Source of the DNA: Sapria himalayana
Taxonomy: Eukaryota; Streptophyta; Magnoliopsida; Malpighiales; Rafflesiaceae
Direction of reading: 5' to 3'
Length of the DNA: 64,000 nucleotides
Assembly (NCBI GenBank): GCA_029783825.1
Contig: JAREIK010002991.1
Coordinates: 117,001-181,000, forward strand
Position numbers and translations under genes: made by a program. Below the pieces are notes generated by a model. That model was given only the letters and a program-made list of their open reading frames with translations, did no database searches and was not told where the DNA came from. Every line of letters begins with the position of its first letter. Within the stretch, counting starts at the first letter, position 1. This document shows, piece by piece, positions 14,219 to 46,357 of this stretch.

Positions 14219-14226
14219 CCCACATG

Positions 14227-15624: not shown

Positions 15625-16559
15625 CATGAATATTATCATTGAACTAGCTTCTCTAGTACTCTCATATTGTCGATACCTTCTAAGTCACCCTTCAATAATT
15701 AGAATAGGCCTTACGCAAAAATTATATATAACAAACATAGTTTTGTCAGCATAAAGGTAACTCAAAAGCTCAATATCATATGTTAATAAACTATAATTAA
15801 TTGTAACACCAACCTCAAACTTGGAAGCCTAGAAACCAGGCAGGGTCTACTGCTAATATACCACTTCATGGCCCACCACCATTTAATATTGTAGTAGTCA
15901 CCACATTACGTTCCTCCATTAATCCTCTTCTTCAAAAGTTTTTCTCCCATCATTAACAAGTTGTGCCATCAACTCATCCTCTTCTTCTAGTTTTGATTTA
16001 TGACATTCTAGTTTTGGTCAATTTTCATTATCTCGTTTAAAATATTTATCATCCTCATAAACTTTATGAAAGTTAAAGTCTCGTGATATTTATGATTGTA
16101 ATAGATATAAATTAGTAAGATTTTCAGTTGTACCATTTATCATAAGTTTTTATTATTAATTCTTGTTTATTTGATTTTATTCAGTATGACCCCTACGGAG
16201 CCTCCTCCTATTCACACAAAAGGAGGATCTTAATATTGTGTATCACTCATTGATGATCATACTCACTATTGATGGCATTATTTAATAAAATATTATTTTG
16301 AATTCTTTGACAAACTATACATTTTGTGTTATTATAAAAACTCAACACTCTACAATTATCATATGTTCGAAGTATGATATTGCCCATTGGTAATGAACAT
16401 ATTTCTAATAAATTTATTGAGTTGCTTATCTCGAATGAAATAATTCATCATACTCAACTTATAAATACTCCATTCCATGAATGACATGATTGTCTTACTG
16501 TGTCGTGCCCATTTGACAACTCTAATTCTATCCATCACTTTGTTATAACATGACTAGAT
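15625..16559. other. AT-rich sequence, possibly the 5' part of a copia element
   Basis: No clear domain. A small MITE-like end (TTTGACAACTCTAA) lies near 16512-16526. The stretch leads into recognisable copia pol and may contain its decayed upstream part. Confidence 0.3.
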
Positions 16560-18503
16560 ATGATCTTATTATTACTAATCATTTTTAGAGGGTTCTGATA
16601 ACTTGTTTTCTCAAGTTTCTAGTACTTTGGAAACCCCTTCTCATATTCTTCCTCATTTTTCCTTGCATTTTATTCATAATGTTTGTTCTAATAATATTAT
16701 AGTTACTAACACTCTAGTCTCCAGAACACCTGAAGCTCCACCTTCTATATGGTCCATCGAGCTTTGTACAATATTGTAGATCCACCTATATGTTGATCCA
16801 TGTGTTTATAAAGCTACACTACAATGTTATCATATTTTGCTTTTCTTTTTATTCCTTATCTTTTATTTGTTTTTTAGCTTCAACTCATTCTTTCTCTAAG
16901 TATTCGTCTAATAAATAGATCATTCTTGACCCACGCCAACTATGAGTTATAAATGAAGAACTTTCTACTTTGTATAAGATAAATACTTAGGATTCGGTTT
17001 CTCTACCTCCTAATAAGAGTATTGTAGTTGTCCCAAAGTATATAATATCAAGATTAAATCTGATAGATCTATCAATCAGTTCAAAGCTAGGTTAGTTATA
17101 AGAAGATATTCACAATAGTATGATATGTATTATGAAGAGACTTTTCCTCTTGTTGCAAATTTGACTACTATTCAAACTCTTATTATTGTAGCTTTTCTAG
17201 TTCAACATTAATGTTTTTTCTCAACTTGTTAAAAATTATTTTTGAATGGGGATCCCCAAGAAAAAGATCACATGGAGCCTCCTCCTAATAGTTATCATGC
17301 TTCTTGCTATATTTATAAGCTAAGGAAAGTATTATATGGTCTAAAACAAGCACCTTGTGCTTGATTTGAGAAAATTTTCATTGTGATATACTATATTAGA
17401 TTTGTTATTAGTAGTTATGATCATACTCTTTTTTTTTCACTCTCCCCCCAATCACCCCTTACAAATCTCATGATAGATGCATGTGATAAACTTCCATACT
17501 AATCAATCATCTTGGTAGTGATTGTGGCCAAGCACATTTAATTTTAGAGTTCTCATGAGATTTGGTGTATTAGTGATAGTTTAAATAGATATACTGATGT
17601 AGGTTGTGTTCTCATTTCTTTATACATTGATAATATGATTATAACAAGTGTTGATATTGATGATACCTCATTTTTGAAGACATGATCAATATATGTTCGA
17701 GATTTTTTTGAGTGAGCAGCATTAGCTAGAATTATTAATAAAAAAACTATTGATACTCCCAATGATGTTAATGCAAATTATTCTTCTTCTAATTGTGTCT
17801 TTGTTATTAGATCATGTTGTACTATTGTTGAGAGCTTGGGTATGTCTTTCTATTACTCATCATGATAGTGTTTATGTTGTTCATGTTAGTTAGTTTATTG
17901 CTTTCCCTACTATAGTTCAATGGGCAATTGTTCTTCATATTTTGAGGTATCTCCAAGATACATTCTTTCTGAGTCTTATGCATTTAGTCATCACTTTTCT
18001 AGAGTTGATTGCATACTTTAATGTCGATTGTGACAATGATCTAATTATCATAACTCATTTAATAAATTTTATATCTTCTTATGTATTTTTCTTATCTATT
18101 AGAAAAAATAATAATAATTTCTCATTTTTATTTTTTCAACAAAAAAAAAATATCATGCTATGATATCTACTACCAAAGAAATTACGATAGCAATTAAATG
18201 ATATCATGCTATGATATCATTTAATAAATAGTAATTACTTCTCCATACTCCTTTGTATTGCGATAGCAATAGTAACATTTAGATTGCTCACAACTCAGTC
18301 TTTCGTGAACGAACCAAGGACATTGAAATTGATTGCCACAAACACATTATTATCTCAAGCATCGCTTTATGCTATGTGTCTTCTTCCATGTAGCCTATAG
18401 ATTTCATTATCAAGACTCATTATGATTTTTGTTTTCATTTTCTAGTTCAGAAACTCTTAATTCTTATTGAAGTCACATTGTGACTAATGAATTCAAGAGA
18501 GAA
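16560..18503 (+). pseudogene. Copia pol remnant (reverse transcriptase and RNase H)
   Basis: The translation shows copia landmarks in order across several frames: IKIKSDRSINQFKARLV (17050-17100), YEETFPLVA, FLNGD (near 17240), YKLRKVLYGLKQAP (17318-17360), then, after an apparent insertion of about 140 bp (roughly 17445-17586), LYIDNMIITS (about 17617-17650, the YVDDMIITG catalytic site with one Asp changed to Asn). Further on come ILRYLQDT and AYFNVDCDND (RNase H, 17937-18040) and AHNSVFHERT-like sequence (18270-18310). Stops and frameshifts are abundant, so no enzyme can be made. Gag and integrase are not recognisable. Confidence 0.8.
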
Positions 18504-18784
18504 TGTTAATATATATATTTTTTGTTAGATATGAATTTGATCTTTGAAGACTCGGTCATTTGGGTGGTTAATCTCTTGAATACATAATCATGAGGAATTT
18601 GAATTATTTTATTTATTCGGCTTTTAAAGTAGATTTGATATGATAATATGTGTTAGTTATGTGTGCAAATACTTAAATGATAAATTATATAGACAAATTA
18701 GATCCGCTTTTAATTTATGTATATTATCATCCTTTCTATCTTATTTATAATGTTTTAATATTCATATTCTAATATCTCTTGGCA
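18504..18784 (+). repeat. Probable 3' LTR of the copia element
   Basis: Directly after a purine-rich tract (CAAGAGAGAA) the sequence begins TGTTAATATATATATT, a common copia LTR start, and runs to TCTCTTGGCA. The right edge is estimated from similar LTRs; no 5' partner was found. Confidence 0.45.
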
Positions 18785-19375
18785 TTAAAAAAATTCTCAC
18801 AACTTATTTAAATATTTTTTTATTTAATCAATGAATATTTTAATGGTGAATTTGTATCTTGGTGCACAAAACACAAAAAATATAAAAAAACAACATTTTC
18901 TTGCAAAAATATTAAAAAAATACATCAAAACATAAAATAATAATATTTTGATGCACTAAAAATCAGAAACCTAATTTTACACATAACTACACGTTAGATG
19001 CTTAAAAAATAAAAAGTAAACTAATAATATCACTTTCAACACTAACATGTTGAGAGTGAGATTCAAATCCTTACCATCAAATCTTTTTTAATCAAAAGTA
19101 GCACTTTACCTTACCATCAAGACTACACGTCAAACTAATTAACTATAGAAAATACTAATATATATATTATATAGAAATATATTCAATGTATTTATTATAA
19201 TAAAATGCAAACATACATAAATATATAAAAATAAACAGATACAAATATAATAAAAAAAACATATATAAATTTATAAACATAAATATATATAAATATGGAC
19301 AAATATATATAATTAAATAAATATATGTATGTGTAAACACACATACACATACACACATACAAATACACACACACA
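18785..19375. other. AT-rich stretch ending in a CA microsatellite
   Basis: No coding signal. From about 19315 there are ACAC/ACAT repeats in which the next MITE inserted. Confidence 0.4.
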
Positions 19376-19869
19376 TAGGTATATCAAAAATCAACACGAA
19401 ATGATTAAACGACGTGATTAACTATTGATTAAACGAGATTGGATGAGATCTAAACGGGTTCGGGTGATAAACGTGTCAACCCGTTTAACAGATTTAATAA
19501 ATGAGTTGTGTTCGGTTGAGACATGCTAACCTATTTATAACCCGTTTACCCATTTAAATAAATAAGAAAATGGTTAAACGGGTGATTTAACGTGTTAAAT
19601 GGGATAAACATGCGATAAACAAGTAAATGGGTCAAATGAATAGTTTATCGTATTAACACAACCCGACTCAACCCAACCCAACCCAACCCATTAAAATTAG
19701 ACGTGTTAAATGAGATGTGTCATATTGCTCATTTATTAAATGGTTTATATTCGTGTTTCGATTTTTTACTCATTTATTAAACGTGTCATATATGAGTTTA
19801 CATATTTTTCATTCGTCATCAATTTAACCCGTAATCATTTAACCCAACCTAACTCGTTTAATACCCCTA
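19376..19869. mobile_element. hAT-like MITE, AAACGGGTT family
   Basis: The 494-bp body is full of AACCCGTTTAA, AAACGGGT and CCAACCCAACC words. The right end reads GTTTAATACCCCTA and the left TAGGTATATCAAA, a weak inverted pair. CACACACA occurs immediately on both sides, formally an 8-bp target duplication, but the site is a CA microsatellite so this evidence is weak. Confidence 0.55.
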
Positions 19870-20173
19870 CACACACACATACAGAAACACATTCACAGAA
19901 ATACCTTTTTATCGAAGATTTATATTTTGTTGTACCAAGCTTTTCATAATTAAAAAAAAAACACCAAATTTAAAATAATTAATTATATTTACAACAAACT
20001 TTTCATAATAATAAAAAATATACCAATTTTTAAAATATAAAGTTTTTGTAACCAAATAAACAACTCTGTCATACTTGTATAATTAAGATAAACATATTAA
20101 AATATTTATATATTAAAAAAATAAAAATACATATACGAGCATACATAAATTTATGTGTGTGTGTATATATATA

Positions 20174-20602
20174 TGTTGGATTTTGGACAACTTGATTATT
20201 GCGTTAGTACCGTAATATATACGATACAACATAGGGACGCATATGTTGTATATATTTAGTCAAATAATATAATGTTAATATAAGGTTTATTGGACCAATT
20301 TAATGATCTAATACAGTTAAGGGTCCAATTGTCTAATTAATACAGTGTGGGGGCATAATCTGTAATTGTGCAGAATCTCGGGTTAATTACTTATTTGTTG
20401 ATGGGTAAATTAGTAATTAACATAAATTAAATAATTGGGATGTGGTCCCTGGTGAAAGTTGCTTATTTCATAAAGAGTTTCTCTATCTTCCTTGGAACAC
20501 ACGCGAAAACCTAAAGTTAAAAACATATAACTGAGGTTTCTCATCTGGCCCTGAAGCAACGAGCCACCAGAAGACATTCGTTCCTCGATTTTAATAAGAA
20601 CA
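20174..20602 (+). repeat. Copia LTR with primer-binding-site remnant
   Basis: It starts TGTTGGATTTTGG and ends AATAAGAACA, inverted TGTT/AACA termini, and is followed by TGGCATCA (20603-20610), a one-base variant of the start of the copia primer-binding site TGGTATCA. This is therefore the 5' LTR of a copia element whose whole body is gone: the next base begins the satellite array. Confidence 0.7.
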
Positions 20603-23600
20603 TGGCATCATAATTAATCTCTATCTTATTATTAATAGTTTATTAATTTAATTTTAGATCATTATTATAATATGTATCAATAAAATTGTTTAAATTGAAT
20701 TTATATGAAATATAATTATTAATATTATTATAACTAAATATTGTATTCATATTTCAAAAAAATTTAAATATTATTATATTTTCAAATGTTAAAACATATG
20801 AAAATGAGAAAAAATTACAAATTATTTTTTTTTATTTTATTGTCTAAATAAAACCTATAAACCATTAAATATCAAAAAACATAAATCGCTAAACTCCTAA
20901 ACGACAAAACCTCTAAATACTTAAACCATTAAACTAGTATGCATTAATAATAAATCATAAGTCTGATTTTAATTTTTATTCATTATAATTTTAAATTTTT
21001 ATTTTAATTATTTATTAGTTTATTTTTATATAAATATTAATTACAAAATAAATTATTAGTGAGACACATCTAATTTAAATTAAACCAGTATACCCTAAAT
21101 AATAAATCTCAAAATTATTTTTTCTATTATAATTTAAAATATTCATTTTAATTATTTATTTGTTTATTTTTATATTAATATTAATTACAAAATAAATTAT
21201 GAGTTAGATAGATACAATTTATATAAATTATTTTTCATCAAAAAAAATATAGATAAACTTTTTAAAAGAAAAAAAAATTTCAAAACAAATAATTATTATT
21301 TGGTAATACATTTTCCTTTGCTATTAAATCATTTTAGGTTTTCATATTATATTTAAAGTAATATGAATCTTATTCATTATAGAATTTTAATTTATTTTTT
21401 GATAATTATTAGAATATCTATCAATAAAAATTATTTATATTGAATTTATATTATATATAATTATTATAATTATTATAAATAAATATTGTATTCACTCTTA
21501 AAAAAATTTAAAATTATTATATTTTAAAAATTTATAACCTTAAAATCAGAGAAAAAATAATTAAAATAAATTTTTTATTATTTCATTTTTAAAATCAAAC
21601 CTATCGACCATTAAATGCATACTTACTTTAATCATTAAGCTCATAAACCCCGGATTCCCTTAATACACAAACCTTTTAACATCTATATACTACTTAATGA
21701 ATAATAAATCTCATTTTTATGTCTATTTATTATAATTTTAAATATAAATTTTAATTATTTATAGCATAATTTTTTACAAAAATTAATTACAAAATAAATT
21801 TCGAGTGAGACAAATATTATATTAATAATTGATTTTTAATAAATAAAATATAAACTTATAAAAAGAAGGAAAATTTTAGAAATTAAATAGTATTATTAGT
21901 AATATATTTTGATTTGATTTTGAATCATTTTGTGTCGTGTAAGTATAAGTTAATTAATATTTATATTTTTAATAATAGTTTATTAATTTAATTTTTGATC
22001 ATTATTATAATATCTATCATTAAAATTGTTTATATTGAATTTATATGATATATAATAAGTAAGATTAATATAATTATACATGGTATTCACATCACAAAAA
22101 ATATTAAAAATTATTTTATTTTCAAAGGTTATAACCTTTGAAAATCAGAAAAAATCTAAAAAAAAAAATTTTTATTTTTATTTTATAAATAAAAATAAAA
22201 ATTTATTAGTTTATTTTATAAATAAAAAATCAGAAAAAATCTAAACCAATAAACCGCTAGATACTAATTAATAATTAGTAAATTTAATATTTATTTCAAC
22301 TAATTATAATTTTAAATATTCATCTTAATTATTTATTAGTTTATTTTTATAGAAATATTTATTACAATATACATTATGAGTGCGACAAATGTAATTTAAA
22401 TAATTTATTTTTAATCAAAAAATATAAATACTCTTATAAAAGAAGTAAAAATTTAAAAATTAAAAATTAAAAATTATAATTCAATAATATATTTTACTTT
22501 ATTTTTGAATCAATTTGGGTATTTTAAATATTTTTTAATTAATCTCTATCTTATTATTAATAGTTTATTAATTTAATTTTTGATCATTATTATAATATCT
22601 ATTAATAAAATTATTTATATTGAATTTATATGATATATAATTATTAATATTATTATAACTAAATATTGAATTCACATTTCAGAAAATTTTAAATATTATT
22701 ATATTTTCAAAGGTTATAACATATGAAAATTAGAAAAATTACAAATTTTTTTTTGTTATTTTATTGTCTAAATAAAACCTATAAACTACTAAATGTCTTA
22801 AAACATAAATTGCTAAACTCTTAAACGACAAAACCTCTAAATACTTAAACCATTAAACTGGTATGCGTTAATAATAAATCATAAGTTTGATTTTAATTTT
22901 TATTCAGTATAATTTTAAATTTTTATTTAAATTATTTATCAGTTTATTTTTATAGAAATATTAATTACAAAAAAATTATTAGTGAGACACATCTTATTTA
23001 AATTAGACCAATATACCCTAAATAATAAATAATAAATCTCAATATTATTTATTTCATGATAATTTATAATATATTGTTTAATTTCTTATTTATTTATTTT
23101 TATATAAATATTAAATACAAAATAAATTATGAGTTAGATAAATATAATTTATATAAATTATTTTTCATCAAAAAAATATAAATAAACTTTTTAAAAAATA
23201 AAAAAATTTCAAAACAAATGATTATCATTTAGTAATTTATTTTCCTTTGCTTTTGAATCATTTTAAGTTTTCATATTATATTTTAAGTAATATGAATCTT
23301 ATTCATTATAGATTTTTTATTTATTTTTTGATAATTATTAGAATATCTATCAATAAAAATTGTTTATATTGAATTTATATTATATATAATTATTATGATT
23401 ATTATAAATAAATATTATATTCACTCTTGAAAAAAATTTAAAAATTATTATATTTTCATAATTTATAACCTTAAAAATCTGAGACAAAATAATTAAAATA
23501 AATTTTTTTTATTTCATTTTTAAAATGAAACCTATCGACCATTAAATTCAAAGGTTATAACCTTCAAAAATGAGAAAAAATGACAAAAATAAATTTTTTG

Positions 23601-26600
23601 TTATTTTATTTTTTAAATAAAAGTAATAAACCTCTAAATGACTAAAAACTAAAATGACTAACTCCTAAACCGCGAAGCCCATAAATAATTAAATTATTAA
23701 ATTAGTATAGTCTAAATAATAAATCATAAATCTCATTTTTATTAGTATTCATCATAATTTTAAATATTCATTTTAATTATTTATCAGTTTATTTTTATAG
23801 ATATATTAATTATAAAATAAATTATTAGTAAGACAGATATAATTTAAATAATTTATCTTTCATCAAAAAAAAATATATGTTTAGAAAAAGAGTCACAATT
23901 TTAAAAATAAAAAATTATTATTTAGTAATATATCTTATTTTGATTTTGAATCATTTTAAATTTTACAATTATATTTTAATTTATATCATTCTTATTAATA
24001 CTAGTTTATTAATTTATTTATTGATCATTATTATAATATATATTAATAAAATTATTAATATTTAGTTTACATTATATATAATTATTGAGATTATTATAAC
24101 TAAATATTATATTCACATTTTAAAAAAATTAAAAATTATTATATTTTGGAAGGTTACAACCTTCGAAAATTAAAAAAAAATCAAAAAAAAAATTAAATTT
24201 TTTGTTTTTTCATTCTTTAAATAAAAAATATAAATCACTAAAGGTCTAACACTTAAATCACTATAATTATTTATTAGTTTATTATTATAATTCTAAATTC
24301 TAAATACTTAAACAGTTAAATCACTATTATAAATCACTAAAGGTTATTTGAATTCATTATAATTCTAAATAATCATTTTAATTATTTATTAGTTTATTAT
24401 TATAAAATTATATAATATAAAATAAATAATAAGTAAGAAAAATATAATTTAAATAATTTATTTTTTATAACAAAAATATAAACTTATAAAAAAAGAAAAA
24501 TATTAAAAAAATTATAATTTAGTAATATATTTTACTTTGATTTTGAATAAATTTATGTTTTGCAAATATATTTTAAATAATATCAATCTTATTAATAATA
24601 GTTTATTAATTTATTTTTTGTTCATTATTATAATATCTAGCAATGTAATTATTTATATTGAATTTAAATGACTAATAATTATAAAGATTATTATAACTAA
24701 ATATTATATTTACATTTGAAAAAAATTTAGAAATTATTATATTTTCAAAGGTTATAACCTTCAAATATTAGAAAAAATAATAAAAATAAATTTTTTATAA
24801 TATCATTGTTTAAATAAAACTTATAAACTACTAAATACCTTAACACTTAAATCTCTAAACTCTTAAACACAAAAGCACCTAAATAATTAAAACAAGAAAC
24901 TCGTAAATCTTAAATATAATTTAAATAATTTATTAAAATATTAATCACAAAATAAATTATGAGTGATACAAATATATTTTAAATAATTTATTTTAAATCA
25001 AAAAAATAGTCTTATAAAAAGAAGCAAAAACTAAAAAACAAATATTATTATTTAGTAATAAATTTTAATTTGATTTTGAATAATTTTAGGTTTTGTAATT
25101 ATATTTTAATTTATATCTATCATATTAATAATAGCATATTAATTCTTTTTTTTTTTGATAATTGATAACATATCTATCAATAAAATTGTTTGTATTTAGT
25201 TTATATTATATATAATTATTTTTAATAAATTTTAAAATTATAATATTTTCAAAGGTTATAACCTTTGAAAATGTAAGAAAATATCAAAAATAATTTTTAT
25301 TTGTTATTTCATTGTTTAAATAAAACATATAACCACTAAATCCCTAAACACTTAAATCAATAACTACTAAATCTTGAAAACCCTAAATAGATAATGCTTT
25401 TAAACATTATACCCTAAATAATAAATAATAAATCTCAATATTATTTTTTTCATTATAATTTAAATTTTCCATTTTATTTATGTATTCATTTATTTTTATA
25501 TAAATATTAATTACAAAATAAATTATGAGTTAGACAAATATAATTTATATAAATTATTTTTCATCAAAAAATATAGATAAACATATAAAAAGAAGAAAAA
25601 ATTTAAGAACAAAAATTTATTATATAGTAATATATTTTACTTTCCTTTTGAATCATTTTAGGGTTTATAATTATATTTTAATTGATATCTATCTTATTAA
25701 TAATATATTATAAATTTATTTTTTGATCATTATTAGAATATTTATCAATATAATTATTTATATTGAATTTATATGATAAATAAATATAATGATTTTTATA
25801 ACTAAATATTGAATTCACTTTTGAAAAAAAATTAAAAATTATTATATTTTCAAAGGTTATAACCTTTGAAAATATCAAAATATAATAAAAATAATTTTTT
25901 TTTATTTTATTTTTTAAATAAAACATGTAAACCACTAAATGCATACACACTTAAATAAATCCTATAACCGTTGAAAATATTTTTTGATCATTATCAGTAA
26001 ACTCCTAAACCCCATAATGCATGAATACATAAATCATTAAATCGCTATATACTATTTAATAATAAGTAAATCTAATTTTTATTTCTATTTATTATAATTT
26101 TAAATATTCATTTTAATTATTAATAGTTTCTTTTTATAGAAATATCTAGTACAAAATAAATTATGACTGCGACAAATATAATTTAAATAATTTATTTTTA
26201 ATCAAAAAAAATAAATATAGCCTTATAAAATAAGAAAAAATTTAAAAATTAAAAATTATTATCCGGTAATATATTTTACTTTAAATTTGAATCAATTTGG
26301 GTTTTATAAATATTTTTTAGTTATTTCTATCTTATTATTAATAGTTTATTAATTTAATTTTTGATAATTATTATAATATTCATCAATAAAATTGTTTATA
26401 TTGAATTTATATGAAATATAATTATTAATATTATTATAACATAAGATTGTATTCACATTTCAAAAGATTTTAAATATTATTATATTTTCAAAGGTTATAA
26501 CCTATGAAAATGAGAAAAAATTACAAATTTTTTTTTGTTATTTTATTGTTTAAATAAAACATATAAACTACTAAATGTCTTAAAACATAAATCGCTAAAC

Positions 26601-29600
26601 TCATAATCGACAAAGCCTCTAAATACTTGAACCATTAAACTTGTATCCATTAATAATAAATCATAAATCTCATTATAATTTTTATTCAGTATAATTTTAA
26701 ATTTTTATTATAATTATTTATATATTTATTCTTATAGAAATATTAATTACAAAATAAATTATAAGTAAGACAGATCTATTTTTAAATTAAACCGGTGTAC
26801 CCTAAATAATAAAGTATACATCTAATTTTTTTATTATAATTTTAAATATTCAAATTTTATTATTATTTGTTTATTTTTATATAAATATTAATTACAAATA
26901 AATTATGAGTTACACAAATATAATTTATATAAATTATTTTTCATTTTAGGTAATATTAATTTATATAAATTAATTTATATAATTTATTTTTCATTTATAT
27001 AATTTATATAAATATTAATTTATATAAATTAATTTATATAATTTATATATAAATATTAATATAGATAAACTTTTTAAAAAAATATAATTTTCAAAACAAA
27101 AAATTAATATATAGTAATATATTTTGCTTTGCTTCTGGATCATTTTAGGTTTTGTATATATATTTTGATTGATATATATCTAATTAATAATAGATTATTA
27201 ATTTATTTTTTGATCATTATTAGAATATTTATCATTAAAATTGTTTATATTAAATTTATATGATATATTAAAATAATGATTATTATAACTAAATTTTGAA
27301 TTAACTTTTGAAAAAAATTTTAAAATTATTATATTTTCAAAGGCTACCTTTGAAAATATCAAAAAATAATAAAAATAAATTTTTTGTTATTTTATTTTTT
27401 AAATAAAACCTATAAACCACGAAATTCACACACAGTTAAATCATTAAACTCCTAGGCCTCGTAATGCCTAAATACATAAACCATTAAAATGATATATGCT
27501 CCTTAATAATTAGTAAATTTAATATTTATTTCAATTTATTATAATTCTAAATATTCATTTTAATTATTTATTAGTTTATTTTTATAGAAATATTTATTGC
27601 AAAATAAATTATAAGTGCGACAAATATAATTTAAATAATTTATTTTTAAGCAAAAAAATATATATACGCTTATAAAAGAAGTAAAAATTTAAAAATTAAA
27701 AATAATTATCTAGTATTATATTTTAAATAAATTTTGAATCAATTTGGGTTTCGTAAATATTTTTTAATTAATTTCTATCCTATTATTAATAGTTTATTAA
27801 TTTGATTTTTGATTATTATTATAATATCTGTCAATAAAATTGTTTATATTGAATTTATATGATATATAATTATTAATATTATTATAACTAAATATTTTAT
27901 TAACATTTCAAAAAATTTTAAATATTATTATATTTTCAAAGGATATAACCTATGAAAATGATAAAAAAGTACAAAATATTTTTTTGTTATTTTATTGTTT
28001 AAATAAATCCTATAAACCACTAAATGCCTAAAAACATAAATCACTAAACATCTAAACAACAAAACCTCTAAATACATAAACCATTAAAATAGTATACATT
28101 AATAATAAATCATAAATATCATTTTAATTAGTATTCAGTATAATTTTAAATTTTTATTTTAATTACTCATCAGTTTATTTTTATAAAAATATTAATTTCA
28201 AAATAAATAATTAGTGATACAGATATAATTTAAATTAGACCAGTATACCCTAAATAATAAATATTAAATCACAATATTATTTATTTCATTATAATTTAAA
28301 ATATTTTTTTAATTAGTTATTTGTTTATTTTATATAAATATTAATTACAAAATAAATTATGAGTTAGATAAATATAATTTATATAAAATATTTTTCATAA
28401 AAAAAATACAGATAAACTTTTTAAAAGAAGAAAAAAATTCAAAATAAAAAATTATTATATAGTAATATATTTTGCTTTGCTGCTCGAACATTTTAGGTTT
28501 TTTAATTATATTTTAATTGATATCTATCTTATTAATAATAGATCATAAATTTATTTATTGATCATTATTAGAATATTTATCAATAAAATTGTTTATATAT
28601 AATTTATATGATATATAAATATAATGATTATTATAACTAATTATTGTATTCACTTTTGAAAAAAATATAAAATTTATTATATTTTCAAAGGTTATAACCT
28701 TTAAAAATATCAAAAAATAATAAAAATAATTTTTTAGTTATTTTTTTTTAATAAAACCTATAAACCACTAAATGCACACACAGTTAAATCATTAAACTCA
28801 TAAATCACCTACTGTCTAAATACATAAACCATTAAACCGCTATAAACTAGTTAATAATTAATAAATATAATTTTTTTTTTCATTTTATTATAATTTTAAA
28901 TATTCATTTTAATTATTTATTAGTTTATTTTTATAGAAATATTTACTACAAAATAAATTATGAGCGCCACAAATATAATTTAAATAATATATATTTAATC
29001 AAAAAGTTATGTACGCTTATAAAATAAATAAAAAATTTAAAATAAAAAATTATTATCCAGTAATATATTGTAGTTTAATTTTGAATCAATTTGCGTTTTG
29101 TAAATATTTTTTAATTAATCTCTATCTTATTATTAATAGTTTATTGATTTAATTTTTGATTATTATTATAATATCTATAAATAAAATTGTTTATATTGAA
29201 TTTATATGATATATAATTATTAATATTATTATAACTAAATATTGTATTCACATTTTAAAAAATTTTAAATATTATTATAATTTCAAAGGTTATTACTTAT
29301 AAAAATGAGAAAAAATTACAAAATATTTTTTAGATATTTTATTGTCTAAAAAAAACCTATAAACCACTAAATACCTTAAAACATAAATCGCTAAAATCTT
29401 AAACGACAAAACCTCAAAATACTTAAACCATTAAACTGGTATGCATTAATAATAAATCATAAATCTCATTTTAATTTTTATTCAGTATAATTTAAATTTT
29501 TATTTTTATTATTTATCAGTTTATTTTTATAAAAATATTAATTACAAAATAAATTATTAGTGAGACATATTTAATAAATTACTAAACTCCTAAACAAATT

Positions 29601-32600
29601 TATTTTATTTTCAAAGGTTATAACCTTTGAAAATCAGAAAAAATCTAAAAACAAATTTTTTTATTTTTATTATATAGATAAAACATATAAGCCACAGAAT
29701 GCCTAAAACCATAAATTACTAAACTCCTAAACAACAAAACTCCTAAATAATCAAACCAATAAACCGATATACCATATTTAATAAATCATAAATCTCATTT
29801 TAATTGTATTCATTATAATATTATATATTCAATTTAATTATTTATTAGTTTATTTTTTATAGAAATATTTATCACAAAATAAATAATGAGTGAGACAAAT
29901 ATAATTTTAATAATTTATTTTTAATCAAAAAAAATAAAAGCTTATAAAAAGAAGTAAAATTTTAAAAACAAAAATGTTATTATTTAGTAAAATTTTTTAC
30001 TTTGATTTTGAATCATTATATACGGGTTTTCCAATTATATTTTAATTAGTATCAATATTATTAATAATAGTTTATTAATTTATTTTTTGATCATTATTAT
30101 AATATCTATCAATAAAATTACTTATATTGAATTTAAACGTATTATAATTTTTACGATTATTATAACTAAATATAATATTTACATTTGAAAAAAATTTAAA
30201 AATTATTATATTTTCAAAGGTTATAACATTTGAAAATGATAAAAAATCACAAAAATAATTTTTTATTATTTTATTATTTAAATAAAACTTATAAACCACT
30301 AAATACCTAAACATTTAAATCTATAGACTCCTAAACCCCAGAACCCCCTAAATACTTAAAGCATTAAACCTAAATAACCTAAATAATAAATGATAAATCT
30401 CATTTTTATTTGTATTCATTATAATTTTAAATATTCATTTTATTTATTTTTTTAGTTTATTTTTATATAAATATTAATTACAAAATAAATAACGAGATAG
30501 ATATAATTTAAAAAAATTATTTTGTATTAAAAAAATATAAGCTCATAAAAATAAATAAAATTTCAAAAATTTAATATTTTATTTAGTAATTTAATTTACA
30601 TTGATTTTGAATTATTTTGTGTTCTGCAAATATATTTTAATTAATATCTATCTAATTAATAATAGTTTATTAATTTATTTTTTGATCATTATAATAAAAT
30701 ATATTATAAATTTTTTTATATTGAATTTACAACAAATATAATTATTAAGATTATTATAACTAAGTATTGTATTCATATTATAGAACTATTAATACTTATT
30801 ATATTTTCAAAGGTTATAACCTTTGAAAATCACGAAAATTCATAAAAATATTTTTTTTATTATTTCAATGATTAAATAAAACCTATAAACACCAAAATGC
30901 GTAAACATATAAATCAATAAACTCCTTAACCTAAAAACCACAAAAAACATAAACAATTAAATAGTTATACCCTAAATCATAAATCATAAATCTCATTTTT
31001 ATTAGTATTCATTATAATTTTAAATATACATTTTAATTATTTATTAGTTTATTTTATAGAAATATAAATTAAAAAATAAATTATTAGTGAAAAGAATATA
31101 ATTTAAATAATTTATTTTTCATAAAAAAATATAAGCTTATAAATGGATACAAAAATTTAAACATTTAAAATTAATATTTAGTAAAATATTTCACATTGAT
31201 TTTGAATCATTTTAGGTATTGCAAATATCTTTTAAACAATATTTATCTTATTAATAATTTTTTATTATTTTTCTATGATCAATATTATAATATATATCAA
31301 TAAAATAGTTTATATTGAATTTATATGATATATAATTATTATGCTTATTATAACCTTAAATAAGAGAAAAAATGATAAAAATAAATTTTTTGTTATTTTA
31401 TTTTTTAAATAAAACATATAATCCACTAAATAACTAAATACTAAAATGACTAAACTCCTAACCCCCGAAGCTGATTAATACTTAAAACATTAAATTAGTA
31501 TATTCTAAATAATAAATCATAAATCTCATTTTTATTAGTATTCATTATAATTTTAATATTCATTTTAATTATTTATCAGTTTATTTTTTAGAAATATTAA
31601 TTATAAAATAAATTATTAGTGAGAAAGATATAATTTAAATAATTTTTTTTTCATAAAAAAAATATATATGCCGATAAAAAGATGCAAAATTTTTTAAAAA
31701 AAAATTATTATTTATTAATATATTTTATTTTAATTTTTAATCATTTTAGATTTTACAATTATATTTTAATTTATATCATTCTTATTAATACTAGTTGATT
31801 AATTTATTTATTGATCATTATTATAATATATATTAATAAAATTATTTATATTTAGTTTACATTATATATAATTATTAAGATTATTATAACTAAATATTAT
31901 ATTTATATTTTAAAAAATATAAAAATTATTATATTTTCAAATGTTACAATCTTCAAAAATTAAAAAAAAATCAAAAAATTAAATTTTTTGTTTTTTCAGT
32001 CTTTAAATAAAAACTATAAATCACTAAAGGTCTAAACACTTAAATCACTAAATTTCTAAACCACAAAATACATAAATACTTAATTTATAAATCTGGTATA
32101 TCCTAATATAATAAATAATAAATATCAATTTTATTTGTATTTATTATAATTTTAAATATTCATTTTAATTATTTATTAGTTTATTATATATTTTTATAAT
32201 TTACAAAATAAATTATGAGTATGACAAATATAATTTAAATAATAATTTTTAATAACAAAAATATAAACTTATAAAAAAAGCAAAATATTAAAAAAATTAT
32301 TATTTAGTAATATATTTTACTTTGATTTTGAATAAATTTAGATTTTGCAAATATATTTTAAATAATATCTATCTTATTAATAATAGTTTATTAATTTATT
32401 TTTTGATCATTATTATAATATCTTGCAATGTAATTATTTATATTGAATTAAATGACTTATAATTATTAAGATTATTATAACTAAATATTATATTTACATT
32501 TGAAAAAAATTTAGAAATTATTATATTTTCAAAGGTTATAAACTTCAAATATTAGAAAAAATAATAAAAATAATTTTTTTGTTATATCATTATTTAAATA

Positions 32601-34993
32601 AAACTTATAATCCACTAAATGCCCAAACACTTCAATCTCTAAACTCCTAAACACAAAAGACCCTAAATACTTAAACATTTAAACTCGAAAACCTTAAATA
32701 TAATTTAAATAATTTTTTAAATTATTAATTACAAAATAGGTTTTGCAATTATATTTTAATTTATATCTATCATATTAATAATAGCATATTATTTTTTTTT
32801 ATAATTAATACCATATCTATAAATAAAATTGTTTAGATTTAGTTTATATTATATATAATTATAATGATTATTATTACTAAATATTGTATTCATATTTTTA
32901 AAAATTTTAAAATTATTATATTTTCAAAGATTATAAACTTTGAAAATGTGAGAAAATATCAAAAATAATTTTTTTGTTATTTCATTATTTAAATACAACC
33001 TATAAACTACTAAATGCCTAAACACTTAAATCAAAAACTCCTAAATATCGAAAACCCTAAATAGAAAATCCTTTTAAACTGTATACCCTAAATAATAAAT
33101 AATAAATCTAAATATTATTTTTTTCATTATAATTTAAAATATTCATTTTAATTATTTATTCATTTATTTTTATATAAATATTAATTACAAAATAAATTAT
33201 AAGTTAAACAAATATATTTTATATAAATTATTTTTCATCAAAAAATATAGTTAATCTTATAAAAATAAGAACAAATTTAAAAAGAAAAATATATTATATA
33301 GTAATATATTTTGATTTCCTTCTGAATCATTTAAGATTTTTTAATTATATTTTAATTGATATCTATCTTATTAATAATATATTATAAATTTATTTTTGAT
33401 CATTATTAGAATATTTATCAATAAAATTATTTATATTGAATTTATATGATAAATAAATATAATAATTTTTATAAATAAATATTCAATTAACTTTTGAAAA
33501 AAATTTTAAAATAATTATATTTTTAAAGGTTATAACCTTTGAAAATATCAAAAAATAATAAAAATAATTTTTTGTTATTTTATTTTTTAAATAAAACCTA
33601 TAAACCACTAAATGCATATCAGTTAAATCAGTAAACTTATAAACCCCGTAATAACTAAATATATAAACCATTAAACCGCTATATACTACTTAATAATTAG
33701 TAAATATAATTTTTATTTCTATTTATTATAATTTTAAATATTCATTTTAATTATTTATTAGTTTATTTTTATAAAAATATTTATTACAAAAAAAATTATG
33801 AGTGCGACAAATATAATATAAATAATTAATTTTTAAACAAAAAATATATATACGCTCATAAAAGAAGTAAAAATTTAAAAATTAAAAATTATTATCCGGT
33901 AATATATTTTACTTTAATTTTGAATCAATTTGGGTGTTGTAAATATTTTTTAATTAATTTCTATCTTATTATTAATAGTTTATTAAATTAATTTTTGATC
34001 ATTATTTTAATATCTATCAATAAAATTGTTTATATTGAATTTATATGATATATGATTATTAAGATTAATATAATTATACATGGTATTCACATTTCAAAAA
34101 ATTTTAAAATTTATTTTATTTTCAAAGGTTATAACCTTTGAAAATCAAAAAAAAAATTATTTTTATTATATAAATAAAACCTATAAACCACTTAATACCT
34201 AAAATCATAAATTGCTAAACTCCTAAATGACAAAACCCCTAAATACATAAACCATTAAACCGGTATACCATTTATAATAATTTATAAATATCATTTTAAT
34301 TTGTATTAATTATAATTTTAAATATTCAGTTTAATTATTTATTAGATTATTTTTATAGAAATATTAATTACAAAATAAATAATGAGCGAGACAAATATAA
34401 TTTTAATAATTTATTTTTAATCAAAAAAAATATATAAGATATAAAAAGAAGTTAAAATTTAAAAACAAAAATTTATTATTTAGTAATATATTTTACTTTG
34501 ATTTTAAATCATTATAGGTTTTGCAATTATATTTTAATTGCTATGAATCTTATTAATAATAGTTTATTAATTTATTTTTTGATCATTATTATAATATCTA
34601 TCAATAAAATTACTTATATTGAATTTAAATTACTTATAATTATTATGATTATTATAGCTAAATATTATATTTACATTTGAAAAAAATTTAGAAATTATTA
34701 TATTTTAAAAGGTTATAACCTTCAAAAATGATAAAAAATCACAAAAATAATTTTTTGTGATTTTATTATTTAAATAAAACTTATAAACCACTAAATGCCT
34801 AAACATTTAAATCTCTAGACTCGTAAATCCCAAAATCTCTAAATACTTAAACCATTAAACATATATAACCTAGATAATAAATAATAAACCTCATTTTTAT
34901 TTGTATTCATTATAATTTTAAAATATTCATTTTAATTATTTTATAATTTATTTTTATAAAAATATTAATTACAAAATAAATAATGAGTGAGAC

Positions 34994-36192
34994 TATGGTG
35001 GATGATGTGAATATATTCAGTAGGCTCCTTACCAAGACTGAGGAGGAGGATTACAGCCTTGACTGTATCACTCACGTTATCTCGGGAGAAGAAAGACTAA
35101 AGCTATGTAGGACTCTCACATTAGAAAAGGTGTGGGAGGTGCTGTTTACTATAAAGTCATATAACATTCAAGGGATGGATTACTTATCCTCATTCTTCTA
35201 TAAGTCATGCTGGGACATAGTTAAATGCGATGTGTAGGATGATTGAGTTAGCTTCTTCAAGAAAGATTAGCTGCCGAAATCATTCTACAAGATCATGATC
35301 TCTATATTCCGCAAGGAGAACCAAATAATTTGGAAGGACTAGAGACCGCTCAGACTATGTAATGTGTCGTATAAGATTAATTCCAAGATGCTAGACACGT
35401 GGATTAAGACAAATCTCCATAAATGCATATCGGAGAATTAGGTTTGCTTTGTGCAGGGGAGGAATATATTTAATAATATTCTTCTGGCATAGGAAATGAC
35501 TCGCCTGATTTTCAATGAAAACAAGAGGTCAACCTGATCATTAAGCTCAATATGGTGAAAGCATATGATAAGGCCAGGGCGGACTGGTCTTAACTGGGTA
35601 GGTATTCACCCAGTTTAGATTCGTCGTGGAGTGGAACAACATGATCGACATGTGCATCTACCATAATTGGTTCTCAATTATGATTAATGGGAAGACATTA
35701 AGTTTCTTTTTGTCCACTTTGAAGGCTCCAGTAGGGTGATCCACTGTCACCAACCCTCTTCGTCCTAATGGTAGAGTACCTCTTGAGGCGCCTTAATGAG
35801 CTCTACGAGAAGTACTCGGGAGTCAATTACCTCTTGGGTAGTAATGTATCAGTCAGCCACTAAGCTTATGTGGACGACACCATTATCTTCACTAATGGCT
35901 CTTGAGCATCGCCATTAGGAAGGCAGGGAAGATGCAGCATAGAACAAGCAGATTTCAGGCCAGACCATTAACTTTTTGAAGGACAGTTTTTACTGTGAGA
36001 AAAAAAATCAAAGTGTAACTTCCCAATCACGTACTTGGGCATTTTCCTTTTCAAGGGGCACAACAAGAGTGTATATTATGATAAATTCTTGACGAAATTC
36101 TATTCTCGAATAAAGGATTAGCTGAACAAGTTGCTTTCGAATGGAAGAAATATATTATTGATCAGGCACGTTCTCGACTCACTCCCTTATAA
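34994..36192 (+). pseudogene. L1-type LINE reverse-transcriptase fragment within the satellite
   Basis: The translation follows plant L1 ORF2: LCRTLTLEKVWEVLF, YLSSFFYKSCWDIV (35160-35225), RPLRLCNVSYKINSKMLDTW (35345-35400), SENVCFVQGRNIFNNILLA with a stop (35430-35490), GDPLSPTLFVLMVEYLLR (35738-35790), AYVDDTIIFTNGS with the catalytic YVDD intact (35868-35905), and TYLGIFLFKGHNKS (36030-36075). Stops and frameshifts are present throughout. Endonuclease, RNase H and poly(A) tail are absent. The left boundary follows GAGTGAGAC of a satellite monomer and the right side resumes at the next bases of the monomer, AATATAATTT. Confidence 0.85.
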
Positions 36193-36212
36193 CCTTATAA
36201 GGGAGTGAGTCG
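36175..36212. repeat. Perfect 18-bp inverted repeat at the LINE/satellite junction
   Basis: CGACTCACTCCCTTATAA (36175-36192) is followed by CC and then its exact reverse complement (36195-36212). The left arm is LINE sequence; the end of the right arm (GAGTGAGTC) also resembles the satellite bases left of the insertion (GAGTGAGAC). Confidence 0.9.
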
Positions 36213-36990
36213 AATATAATTTCATATTTTTTTCATCATCAATAAATTATATAACCTTATAAAAAGAAAAAAAAAATAAAAGTCAAAATTTTATTTAGAA
36301 ATATGTTTTATTTAGATTTTGAATTATTTTAGGTATTATAAATATATTTTAATAAATATTTATTATATTTATAATTATTTATTAATTTTTTTTTCATTGT
36401 TATAATACCAATCAAGAAATAAACTTATATTAAATTAACATGATATATTATTCTTATGATTGTTACGACTAAAATATTTAGTAAAAATATAGAATTCAGA
36501 TTGAAAAAAAATTAATTATTTTATTTCAAAAGTAAATAAAAAAATGTAACAATTATTTAATTTAAATAATTTATTTTAAACTAAAATAAAATAAGAAAAT
36601 GTAACAATTATTTTAATTAAAAAGTAACCTTGGAAATTATTTTATTCAAAATTATTTATATGTTTATTTTTATATAAATATTAATTACAAAATATATTAT
36701 AAGTGACCCAAATATAATTTGAAAAAATTTGATTATGATCAAGAAACTATATAATCTTATAAAAAATTAAAAAAATTTAAATACTTAAAAGTATTATCTA
36801 GCAATATGTTTTCCTAAGATTTTCGATAATTTTATAAATATATTTTAATAAATACTTTTGTTATTTACAAGAGTTTAATAATATATTTTACTGTCTTTAT
36901 TATAATATCATTCAAGAAACTAGTTTATATTGAATTAGCATGATATATTATTACTAAAATTATTATAAGCAAACATAGACAAGTGAGAGA

Positions 36991-39900
36991 ATGTAACATT
37001 AATAAGGATAAGTTAAACATCACTATGCCAACATTGAAAATCTATTTGAGATTTCTAACTTTTTATGCTATAAAATAAGATTTCTCTCCTTGAAATATAT
37101 CATAATCTCAATTTTATTTTAGCTTGATAATTTTTTATTATATTATTTAGTTTATCATGTTAGGATTATATTTTTTATTTTCTATTTATTATCGTGGGTT
37201 TTATTTTTATAATATAACATAACATTTAAACTCAATGCCAAATTAATAAATGCATTAATAAAATATTGGGAACAAAGAAACGTGATACAAAATTATAGCA
37301 TTTATAAATGCTTTAACATGGCATTCAATAAATGTTTGATGAACTACAATTTTAACAAATGAAAAAATAGTTTTTTTTATTTAGAACACGAAATGAAAAA
37401 ATATTAATAACCTAATTCCTCAATACACCAATACTTTTATCACAAAAAAATAAATAAAAACTATAAAATAAAATAAAAAAAAAAACTCATCTTGCTGCCG
37501 CAGCCGTTTCAGCAACCATTTCATTTTTAATTAGATAATTTTAACAAAATAATTAAAATTTGTGATGAAAAGACTTTTTTTTCAAAAACATGCTCGTTGT
37601 GCAAATCCTAGTTAGTCAAGCAGAGTGATCTCGCATATCAACATTAAAATCAAACATACGCACTTACTTTTAACTAAAAGATTGTGTTTACTCTTTTTAG
37701 AAATAACCATCATTATCATTGTGAAAATGCATTCTTAATATTGTCATAGTATATTGTATAAATATTAGTTCTACAAATAATTTAACCATTTATCAAACTT
37801 CTAGTCTTTCATATATATCCAACTCGTGATTATTTTAATTCATCATTTTTATTCAAATTTTAATCTAATTTTTAAAAATTCACCTTGATTTTTTCAATCA
37901 TTTATTTATTTGAGTCATATATAACTTCTTTTTTGAATGCATAAATCGATACGATACTCTATTTTTATTTTACATATATAATTCCTAAAAATATCTCAAT
38001 TATTTTATTTTTAATTTGTATCCTCACGGATTTTATCAAACATCCATCTTGATATGTATTTCTTTATTATTTAATTTATTTTTCTTATTATTTCTTTACT
38101 TTATGCTTGGGAGCACCTTATGAGCATTTTGCTACAATCATCTTATGATTGAGAACACCCCACGAATAGGTCCGAATCAAAGTAGCCTAGCATTTGTAAG
38201 TAACTCTTATTTGTATGTTTTATCTTTTTGATTATAAAATTATTATTATTATTTTTGTATTATGCACTTTATGATTATGTGCATATTAGACATACTCCAC
38301 ATGCATTTGTCATGACAAAAAAAAAACTAAAAATTAATATGCTGAGCTTTGAAGACTTGTGAGAAACTTTATAATGTTTGATAAAAATTCTAGAAAGCTC
38401 TAAAGGCTTCAACCCATCTTCTCATTCTAAAATATTTTATGAATTTCTAATGTAGTATAATTATGACATGTGACATAATTTGAATCATTGATAAATGAGA
38501 GCTTGTGTGTATAATATTGTGAATTTAACTTTTATTAATTTGTAACACACTCGTGATGCACAGTAGGCAAGGAGGGAGGAGGATGTACCTAGCACACAAA
38601 GCTCTCACTTTAGCATATAATATATGAAAAATTAATATCTTAATAATATTATTCTCAAAAATCAAAAAGACTACGTCTAATAAGCTTCGCACTCAATATC
38701 AACAATCCCTAGAAAATAATATTTATTATTGTACAAAGACCTAACTTGCGATACATACAAATTACATAATAACTTGTTAATTTATAAGTCATCTCAAAAT
38801 TATTCTTGTTCAGACATTTTTAATTATTGAATTCTTATGAAATTCAGTATGTTATTATTTATATAATCACAAATAAATCCTAGTGTGGGCAGACTATTAT
38901 TTTCATAGAATATGCTAAGTAAATCCTAGATGCACTATGTCTGTGCACATTAGCGTGCACTTTGCACCACATGCACGCAAAAAATTGCTAAATTGTGTGC
39001 AATAGATTGTTGGTGCAATGTGCAACACCAATCCATTGTTGGTGTCAAAATTTGTGTAGGAGCAAGTTACATTGGTGAAAACGAGGGAGCATCTATATGG
39101 TAACATTATGCATATTGCATACATAAAAAAATTTCTAGCAATAGACATATTATACAAATAAATGATATATCAAAAAAAGTTATGCCAATTATTTTCATAA
39201 AAAATATTCTAATGGAAACTTCTTATTTGCTATTATCATAACCATATATTAGTTCTCACGTAATTACTTCATTGTGATGCTGATAATAGATCATATAAAA
39301 TTTCTCTAAGTAATAAATATTTCACATCCACCAAATAATATAGTTCTAGTGACTAATATTATTATTTTAGATACCGAGTCACAAATTGATCAACTAGTAA
39401 TTATATCATAGATAATTTCTATTTGTTCAATATTTTTTATTTTTTTCCTTGATATGATAATAGTAAATATCAAACTATCAAAAATTATTTAATGTTACAA
39501 CATTAAACTTAATATTTTGTTTCTTTCATGTATTTGTTTTATCCCACATTAAGTTGACAATCTTTTTCATAAAATTATCTTTAAATTTAACTCAGACTCT
39601 AACTAGAGATATCAGACAAGTCAGTTCAAGTCATAGAGCCTATTTTTGTGTGCTTAACAAGGGCATAGTGAGTGGTCAAGATGACTATGAGGTATTCATG
39701 CATGGATTGATGACCCACTGGATAAATTGGTGTCCTCATTGCTATCAGATGGCAATCTAGGTTTGTACGAGAAAAAACTAGGTGCTTTTAGGCTAGCCTG
39801 GGATCACATGTCATACTCGAGTCCGAGATCATAGTTTGCATTACGCAATGCACAACCAGAGCATGACTCAAATGCCATAATAATAATATATTAAAATATA

Positions 39901-40583
39901 TATCTGATATCTTTCATACTTATTGTACTATTTCTCAAATTATATATTAGACATGTAGTGTTGGCACTCCCTTTTTATAAGTTTTCTAAAATATTTTTGT
40001 AAGGATATAATTTTAACCAAAAATTATTAAATCAACCAATTTTTTCTTCTATATGTTCTCATTGTCCTTTCAAATATTATATTACAAAATGAGATTATTT
40101 ATTTTCCCAATCAAAATTTTTGAAAATATATATTTTATTCGTGATCTCTCATCATTATGTATCGAAATAACACTTAAGATGACAAAGTATATCTTTTTAA
40201 TTACTCCAATATTTAAAAAAGATTAAAATATCATTCATCTAAATCTGATAGAGCATTAAAGAATAATAATCACTTTTTTGAGTAAGATTTATATACTTCT
40301 ATGAATCTTTTACTTTTCTTCACATTTCTATAATATCCTATTGATTAAGAGAGATGTTTACTCATCAACTATTTCTAAACTTATTAATTCACATTATGAT
40401 AATACGCATATCATTATCATGCATACTAATAAATATACAACAAATAACTTGAGAAAGATAAAGATTACCTTGGAATGAGAATATTTGAATCTCTCTTTAG
40501 TCCAAATAATCTGGTAGCTCTTAAGTCTATTTACTCTCAACTCAAGATAATCCAAGATTCAAAAAACTTGATACTCATCTCAT
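36991..40583. other. AT-rich intergenic DNA
   Basis: No domain recognised. GTGAGAGAATGTAAC at about 36989 looks like a polypurine tract and LTR start, but no other end was found. Two slightly GC-richer patches (38915-39160, with TGCAC-type repeats, and 39580-39870) contain open frames without recognisable similarity. Confidence 0.4.
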
Positions 40584-40754
40584 AAGGAGCTTAGCTGATT
40601 GGGACTTTTGATAATATTCAGGAGGTCACAAGTTCAAATCTTATTGGTGGGAGGTACTAAGAGATATTTCTTACCTGCTCGATTCTCCGAATACCAATGG
40701 GATGTAGGAGCCCACGTAAGTGGGTCCTAAAGTTCTTGGTTTACAAAAAAAAAT
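40584..40754 (+). mobile_element. tRNA-derived SINE, copy 2
   Basis: Diverged copy of the element at 1041: head GGAGCTTAGCTG, B-box-like AGTTCAAATCT (40631-40641), body motif CCCACGTAAGTGGG and tail CTTGGTTTAC followed by nine A. The oligo(A) end fits LINE-assisted insertion. Confidence 0.75.
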
Positions 40755-41099
40755 AGACTTGACCACCTATAAGTTAGAGTTAATACTAGAAAAATGAGAC
40801 ATACAATATGATCAAATTTAGGTAGAATCTTCCATCAAAACTAGATGATTCGACCATTATTATTCTGATCTTGATATTTCAATTTCTTTTTAAAAAAATA
40901 AAAAAATTGCAGACATTACTCTATTTTACACGTGTTGTTGTTTTTTAACTATTATTTGGTGTCATTTAGTACAACTCATAATGATATTATCAAATAGAAT
41001 TTTTTTAAGACTATCTCACTAACTATAATATTGGACCATAATATAAGACAAAGAAACTAATACTTCAACCTATAAGAATATTTATTATTAGTTGCAATA

Positions 41100-43786: not shown

Positions 43787-43829
43787 GCTTTCTTCCCCTG
43801 CTGTATGAACCTTGAAAACATAATTTAGA

Positions 43830-46220: not shown

Positions 46221-46357
46221 ATAATATATATTTATATATTTATATATAAATATATTTAAATACATAAATATGTAAATACATAAATATGTAAATACATAAA
46301 TATGTAAATATATAAATATTTACATATATAAATATATAACTATATAAATATATAAAT
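46221..46357. repeat. 8/16-bp minisatellite left of the gypsy element
   Basis: AAATACATAAATATGT repeats as 16-bp units (two related octamers) grading into ATATAAAT variants. Similar octamers (ATGTATTT, ATAAATAC) recur right of the element at 51345-51470. Confidence 0.7.

What the first reader, a model, noticed from the sequence alone, without database searches (positions are those of the whole stretch)
20611..36990. Satellite of about 600 bp with an octamer-phased TAAA tract in each monomer
In many monomers the tract after the palindrome splits into consecutive 8-mers that mostly end in TAAA or AAAA. In the copy at 34172-34267: AAATAAAA, CCTATAAA, CCACTTAA, TACCTAAA, ATCATAAA, TTGCTAAA, CTCCTAAA, TGACAAAA, CCCCTAAA, TACATAAA, CCATTAAA, CCGGTATA, twelve octamers in one register. 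The copy near 28005 keeps the same register. Several units are close to CCCTAAA-type telomere words but the period is 8, not 7. This may be the relic of a short tandem array from which the satellite grew, or a phased binding or bending site.
Basis: seen in the sequence. Interest (0 to 1): 0.75.

Follow-up and report, generated by a model that had tools for sequence, protein, structure and literature searches.

The report
Fossil eight-base repeat inside a satellite
Each roughly 600-base unit of a plant satellite carries about twelve in-step eight-base words, most ending in TAAA, which look like the slowly eroding remnant of an old short repeat rather than a working binding or bending signal.

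Summary
In the monomer consensus, identity at lags 8, 16 and 24 within the tract is 0.62, 0.64 and 0.65, against 0.21-0.48 at other lags 4-30 (0 of 5000 dinucleotide shuffles reach it), and 23 of 23 tracts tested have best period 8. Elsewhere in the same 2.06-Gb genome 189 of 190 distinct, related tracts agree. Other parts of the monomer show little or no period 8 (mean z -1.6 to 1.1 against 5.5).

Best reading: a short octamer array of about 12 units, caught inside an AT-rich plant satellite before it spread, now decaying at the neutral rate: mean lag-8 identity of copies 0.505, against 0.509 +/- 0.010 simulated with substitution rates measured outside the tract. Tract bases are no better conserved than the same bases elsewhere, indels are not rarer, and A-runs are out of helical phase. 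Homogeneous TAAA-phased octamer arrays lie in the same duplicated block. The ancestral unit is unknown, and decay of one uniform octamer fits poorly (tail probability about 0.015). Low to moderate interest.

The parts
20611..36990 (+). AT-rich satellite array, monomer about 600 bp, interrupted by a LINE-like insertion; left edge about 20611 by self-BLAST, last family match ends 36978
20846..20941 (+). octamer tract
21592..21687 (+). octamer tract (eroded, 2 TAAA words left)
22187..22261 (+). rearranged tract, 75 nt, register lost; dropped from the period test
22770..22865 (+). octamer tract
23615..23709 (+). octamer tract
24219..24328 (+). octamer tract with insertion (110 nt)
24812..24907 (+). 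octamer tract
25318..25411 (+). octamer tract
25916..26049 (+). octamer tract with insertion (134 nt)
26552..26647 (+). octamer tract
27401..27496 (+). octamer tract
28749..28844 (+). octamer tract
29348..29443 (+). octamer tract
29676..29771 (+). octamer tract
30280..30376 (+). octamer tract
30874..30969 (+). octamer tract
31407..31502 (+). octamer tract
32005..32100 (+). octamer tract
32596..32691 (+). octamer tract
32991..33085 (+). octamer tract
33589..33683 (+). octamer tract
34772..34867 (+). octamer tract
34124..34139 (.). 16-bp palindrome AAAGGTTATAACCTTT (one example), about 30-50 bp before the tract; exact in 8 of 22 units that keep these columns, at most one mismatch in 13, at most four in all 22
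34735..34764 (+). example of the A/T-rich hairpin between palindrome and tract (13-bp stem in the centroid fold of this one monomer)
46249..46356 (+). separate octamer array with the same TAAANNNN register; more than 1.3 kb long in the copy of this block on contig C1397
51348..51431 (-). second separate TAAANNNN octamer array

Best explanation
The tract is a fossil octamer array. A short run of about twelve 8-bp units of the form NNNNTAAA (spacer rich in C and T) formed by slippage or unequal exchange in a plant genome that makes many octamer arrays (inferred). It was then caught, beside a palindrome and an A/T hairpin, in a roughly 600-bp sequence that was amplified into a satellite (inferred). 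Since then the unit number has been nearly frozen (shown: 163 of 200 distinct tracts are 95-97 nt long) and the periodicity has been eroding at the satellite's ordinary substitution rate (shown). It has no demonstrated function now.
For: Period 8 in 23 of 23 tested copies and in 189 of 190 distinct, related tracts that do not occur in the window (199 of 200 with the window's own locus counted). Copies' lag 8/16/24 identity 0.505/0.511/0.522 against neutral simulation 0.509/0.517/0.525 (sd 0.010-0.012), starting from the consensus with outside-tract rates. Conservation by base equal inside and outside (A 0.885 v 0.893, C 0.701 v 0.727, T 0.885 v 0.904; same picture). Tract lengths: 163 of 200 at 95-97 nt, 2 at 88 and 0 at 104, so no sign of octamer gain or loss. 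Octamer arrays in the same register at 46249-46356 and 51348-51431, more than 1.3 kb of them in the C1397 copy of the block. By number, period 8 is the commonest short array period in loci L074-L106 plus the window: 8 of 18 arrays with 6 or more units, some being copies of one place; by bases periods 9 and 4 are larger. In those homogeneous arrays variation also piles up in one or two phases, mostly at C/T or G/A sites.
Against: The four spacer positions keep no identity beyond composition (0.41 observed, 0.43 expected), while TAAA is kept in 39 of 40 positions of the ten central consensus octamers against 24 of 40 for the spacers. Simulated decay of a uniform CCCCTAAA array with the measured rates gives so sharp a contrast in only 1.5% of runs at the best time (CCACTAAA 0.7%). 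It needs C and G to mutate 2-3 times faster than measured to reach 8-23% for CCCCTAAA (4-9% for CCACTAAA). So either the starting array was already heterogeneous, or the early mutation pattern differed, or TAAA was once under selection. Among copies, TAAA diverges a little less than expected (0.088 v 0.103; 0.092 v 0.097) and spacers a little more (0.242 v 0.211; 0.235 v 0.212), the direction a binding site would give, though small. Period 8 is slightly raised in the columns just before the tract. No intact progenitor array with C-rich spacers was found; the genome-wide search for octamer arrays got no answer.
Confidence: 0.75

Rival explanations
1. The tract is, or was when the satellite arose, a row of protein binding sites (iteron-like): a TAAA core read every 8 bp with free spacers.
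For: TAAA core near-invariant and spacers near-random in the consensus. Uniform-array decay fits poorly at measured rates. The tract sits next to a palindrome and a hairpin. T of TAAA is 0.92 conserved at 9 sites in the tract against 0.80 at 15 TAAA outside. Among copies TAAA diverges slightly less and spacers slightly more than expected.
Against: The departure is small: TAAA divergence 0.088 against 0.103 expected (23 rows) and 0.092 against 0.097 (184 rows). The A in the middle of AAA is 0.92 conserved in the tract and 0.90 outside. Indels no rarer than in several other parts of the monomer. Periodicity decays at the neutral rate, in the larger set slightly faster at lag 8 (0.513 v 0.523 +/- 0.003).
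Confidence: 0.1
2. Phased A-tract bending or nucleosome-phasing element.
For: AAA occurs at regular spacing.
Against: The spacing is 8, not about 10.5; AAA phase coherence at 10.5 is 0.19, below shuffled 0.33, so small bends would tend to cancel (inferred). Most runs are only three or four A long.
Confidence: 0.03
3. Degenerate interstitial telomeric repeat (CCCTAAA type, or an 8-bp telomere variant such as CCCTAAAA, known from other lineages; recalled).
For: Some words are CCTAAA or CCCTAAA; CCTAAA occurs 25 times in 24 tracts against 7.5 from a first-order model, though that model ignores the octamer phase.
Against: The best period is 8 in 23 of 23 copies. CCCTAAA occurs 6 times and the telobox AAACCCTAA twice in 24 tracts. 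The plant's own telomere repeat could not be checked.
Confidence: 0.07
4. Chance clustering in an A/T-rich sequence.
For: The array is about 87% A+T.
Against: 0 of 5000 dinucleotide shuffles reach the lag-8 value or the harmonic sum; windows not overlapping the tract give mean z of at most 1.05.
Confidence: 0.01

Closest known systems
Plant satellites grown from short tandem repeats of LTR retrotransposons (Lathyrus sativus Ogre 3'UTR repeats; PMC7004042, passages seen)
   Same: A short tandem array embedded in a larger dispersed repeat is linked to a satellite.
   Different: There the short array's own unit becomes the satellite monomer; here the octamer array is only a 96-bp module inside a 600-bp monomer. 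No Ogre/Tat coding domain was seen joined to the array, but only two open frames were searched, so this is not a test.
Octanucleotide micro/minisatellites such as (TAAATACA)n in this same genome block
   Same: 8-bp period, TAAA register, variation concentrated in few phases.
   Different: Those are more homogeneous and vary in length between copies of the block; the satellite tract stays near 12 units, is C-rich in the spacer and highly diverged.
Interstitial telomeric repeats of plants (recalled; review PMC8621592 seen in search listings only)
   Same: Occasional CCCTAAA words.
   Different: Period 8, not 7; few exact telomere words.
Degenerate octamer array in a viral/bacterial contig, IMGVR_UViG_2718218154_000003 (L016)
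   Same: Seven phased TAAA with mixed spacers, several of them C-rich.
   Different: Unrelated genome, single short locus; presumably convergent (inferred).

Membership tests
Satellite DNA | head-to-tail array of related monomers | tested here: met
   33 plus-strand units, 20 near full length, 79.5% mean identity
Satellite DNA | abundant and present at many loci | tested here: met
   40 candidates scored of 3905; 40 full or nearly full-length matches on 39 contigs, the window's own included, 28 at 95-100% and 12 at 89-90%. This gives no copy number
Relic of a short tandem array | excess identity at one lag and its multiples, confined to the tract | tested here: met
   slightly raised z in the two windows just before the tract
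Relic of a short tandem array | periodicity decaying neutrally in descendants | tested here: met
Relic of a short tandem array | recoverable common unit, divergence explained by the mutation spectrum | tested here: inconclusive
   spacers at composition level; joint tail probability 0.015 or 0.007 at measured rates
Phased A-tract bend | A-runs spaced near 10.5 bp | tested here: not met
   coherence 0.19 at 10.5, shuffled 0.33
Interstitial telomeric repeat | 7-bp CCCTAAA period | tested here: not met
   period 8 in 23 of 23; 6 CCCTAAA words in 24 tracts
Protein binding-site array | core clearly more conserved than neutral among present copies | tested here: not met
   a small departure in that direction is reported
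Protein binding-site array | a protein that binds it | not testable with these tools
   needs bench work
LTR-retrotransposon-derived satellite | array located between retrotransposon coding region and LTR | not tested

The most novel reading that the evidence does not exclude
The tract began as a selected row of TAAA binding sites at 8-bp spacing (an origin or chromatin loading site beside a palindrome and hairpin). It helped the sequence become a satellite, after which selection was lost and it now erodes.
Probability: 0.07. Interest if true: 0.6.

Novelty: new member of a known kind. Interest (0 to 1): 0.28.

Why it matters
It gives a worked case of telling a fossil repeat from a functional phased site: the consensus monomer is more periodic than the average copy, and the loss matches the neutral rate. 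It also points to a plant genome region that readily forms octamer arrays, and to a satellite carried inside a large dispersed block, useful for tracing how satellites pick up parts.

Tried and rejected
Chance: rejected by shuffles. Bending: disfavoured by phase. Register protected from indels: not seen; the tract has 0.46 indel events per monomer, other 96-column windows 0.19-1.29, two of which overlap the tract. Octamer gain and loss within the satellite: 2 of 200 tracts at 88 nt and none at 104. A 24-bp super-unit of three octamers: spacer identity at octamer distance 3 is not above permutation (p = 0.34); distances 5 and 6 look higher (0.60, 0.56) but were not tested. Viral collection: 7 exact phased TAAA occur in 73 stretches; 65 have three or fewer spacer kinds, 8 are more mixed; only the matched letters were looked at, plus 300 bases of L016. 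DUF4283 ORF search to place the organism: one 41% match without a name; the species stays unknown. Six answered paper searches showed, in the titles and abstract openings listed, none that describes this satellite or an octamer-phased TAAA tract; passages were read in one paper only (PMC7004042).
Full report
OBSERVATION. An HMM seeded with one monomer and rebuilt three times finds 33 plus-strand units between 20515 and 36978. The first 96 bases of the first match are taken as over-extension; the self-BLAST edge is 20611. Short minus-strand matches, nearly all at the palindrome, were left out. Twenty units are near full length, mean pairwise identity 79.5% (69.9-91.4), in subfamilies that recur along the array, for example 22430, 26219, 27666 and 29013 at 88-91%.

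PERIODICITY. The consensus tract is AAATAAAA CCTATAAA CCACTAAA TGCCTAAA CACTTAAA TCACTAAA CTCCTAAA CCACAAAA CCCCTAAA TACTTAAA CCATTAAA CCGGTATA. Lag 8/16/24 identity is 0.62/0.64/0.65 against 0.21-0.48 at all other lags 4-30. Dinucleotide shuffles give 0.343 +/- 0.049 at lag 8 and none of 5000 reach the observed value (columns 338-433; 0.614/0.625/0.653 for columns 337-432). Per copy, 10 of 33 units were left out (partial, or tract under 80 nt); in the remaining 23 of 23 the best period is 8, mean z 5.55. In a repeat over the whole monomer, tract columns give mean z 5.47. The 96-column windows that do not overlap the tract give -1.62 to 1.05. The two just before it (193-288 and 241-336) are slightly raised, with z > 2 in 4 of 22 and 3 of 22 copies, so a faint extension upstream is possible. 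In loci L074-L104 of the same genome, 311 units give 249 tracts, 200 distinct, 199 with best period 8. One of those loci is the window's own place; 190 distinct tracts do not occur in the window and 189 of them have best period 8. They are relatives and partly copies of one block, so this shows persistence, not independent events.

RELIC OR FUNCTION. Three tests. (a) Conservation by base is the same inside and outside the tract (A 0.885 v 0.893, C 0.701 v 0.727, T 0.885 v 0.904; alike). The stability of TAAA and variability of the spacer among copies is therefore mostly what A/T and C sites do everywhere in this satellite. (b) Evolving the consensus tract with the substitution matrix measured outside it predicts lag 8/16/24 identity of 0.509/0.517/0.525; the 23 copies show 0.505/0.511/0.522. 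With 184 rows lag 8 is slightly lower than predicted (0.513 v 0.523 +/- 0.003), the wrong direction for upkeep. In the same call TAAA positions diverge slightly less than expected (0.088 v 0.103; 184 rows 0.092 v 0.097) and spacers slightly more (0.242 v 0.211; 0.235 v 0.212): small, in the direction of a binding site, and not tested for significance. (c) Indels in the tract (0.46 per monomer) are within the range of other windows (0.19-1.29). So nothing seen here clearly maintains the phase.

AGAINST A SIMPLE RELIC. Among the ten central consensus octamers, TAAA is kept at 39 of 40 positions and the spacer consensus at 24 of 40; spacer identity (0.41) equals what composition gives (0.43). Decay of a uniform CCCCTAAA array at measured rates reproduces this contrast in at most 1.5% of runs after allowing for choice of window (0.7% for CCACTAAA), rising to 8% and 23% (4% and 9%) if C and G mutate two or three times faster than measured. 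The starting array was probably heterogeneous in its spacers, or C mutated faster then, or TAAA was once selected. I cannot separate these.

SOURCE OF OCTAMERS. The same window holds two further arrays with phased TAAA, at 46249-46356 and 51348-51431, built of units such as TAAATACA, TAAATATG and TAAATATA, besides ATATTCAT and TATTCGTA arrays. In the C1397 copy of this block the first one is more than 1.3 kb of (TAAATACA/TAAATATA)n with interruptions. Among short arrays with at least 6 units in loci L074-L106 and the window, period 8 is commonest by number, 8 of 18, some of them copies of one place; by bases periods 9 and 4 are larger. In such arrays variation is also concentrated in one or two phases, mostly C/T or G/A sites. 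Octamer arrays are thus a habit of this genome region, which makes a captured octamer array an ordinary event; direct descent from these particular arrays is not shown, since their spacers differ.

BENDING AND TELOMERES. AAA positions are coherent at period 8 (0.71) and not at 10.5 (0.19, shuffled 0.33). CCCTAAA occurs 6 times in 24 tracts. Neither a bend nor a 7-bp telomere relic is supported.

SETTING. The genome is 2.06 Gb in 18,497 contigs; a 601-base probe finds 40 full or nearly full-length matches on 39 contigs, the window's own included, among 40 candidates scored of 3905. Of the 27 other matches with at least 95% identity, 8 were fetched with flanks; 8 of 8 share the array, the LINE-like insertion (one lacks about 280 bases of it) and the right flank to at least window 38145. 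Two fetched loci at about 90% share only array pieces at the 90% cut used, which would hide more diverged flanks. Collinearity, mostly 93-98% identical, runs from 770 bases left of the window to 46358 in C1397 and from 23285 to 51255 (the end of what was fetched) in C8567; no single copy was followed over the whole span. Large stretches differ: 8563-20219 and 38145-44616 of the window are absent from C1397. The ends of the block were not reached. The palindrome AAAGGTTATAACCTTT is exact in 8 of 22 units that keep these columns, within one mismatch in 13 and within four in all 22. It is followed by an A/T hairpin (fold of one monomer, z -2.78, 1 of 200 shuffles as good).

CONCLUSION. Confirmed observation, ordinary explanation most likely: a nearly frozen, neutrally eroding octamer relic inside a plant satellite monomer.

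Noticed in passing
window -770 to 51255 (C2991 flank L106 plus window; copies C1397, C8567): The satellite sits inside a dispersed repeat block of at least 52 kb with collinear copies on other contigs; two probe matches on contig C11278 lie 49.4 kb apart. Possible giant mobile element or macro-repeat; ends not found.
   Followed up: partly
L102 (C1397 copy, opposite window 46249): A (TAAATACA)n / (TAAATATA)n octamer array of more than 1.3 kb where the window has about 110 bp, so array length differs greatly between copies.
   Followed up: partly
56915-63060: 6-kb nonamer array (AAGAATAAT)n with extreme purine strand bias (GC skew about 0.8 at 58-62 kb).
   Followed up: no
34994-36252: LINE-like insertion in the array (named by eye from the sequence), shared by 8 of 8 fetched near-identical copies, so it predates the spread of the block.
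   Followed up: partly
21079, 23003, 26786, 28235: The same partial unit (model 420 or 421 to 565) follows a full monomer at four places: a rearrangement starting near the tract's end that was probably copied within the array.
   Followed up: partly
L016 8500-8551: A viral/bacterial contig has a degenerate octamer array with phased TAAA and mixed, partly C-rich spacers, much like the satellite tract, presumably convergent.
   Followed up: partly
46973-49191: Fragments that look like a decayed retrotransposon polyprotein (by eye; one weak Pfam match to a Tf2-1-like SH3 domain, below the curated cut-off).
   Followed up: no
63247-63681: Open frame with a DUF4283 domain (Pfam E 3.6e-17), a domain I recall as common in plant LINE-type elements.
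   Followed up: partly
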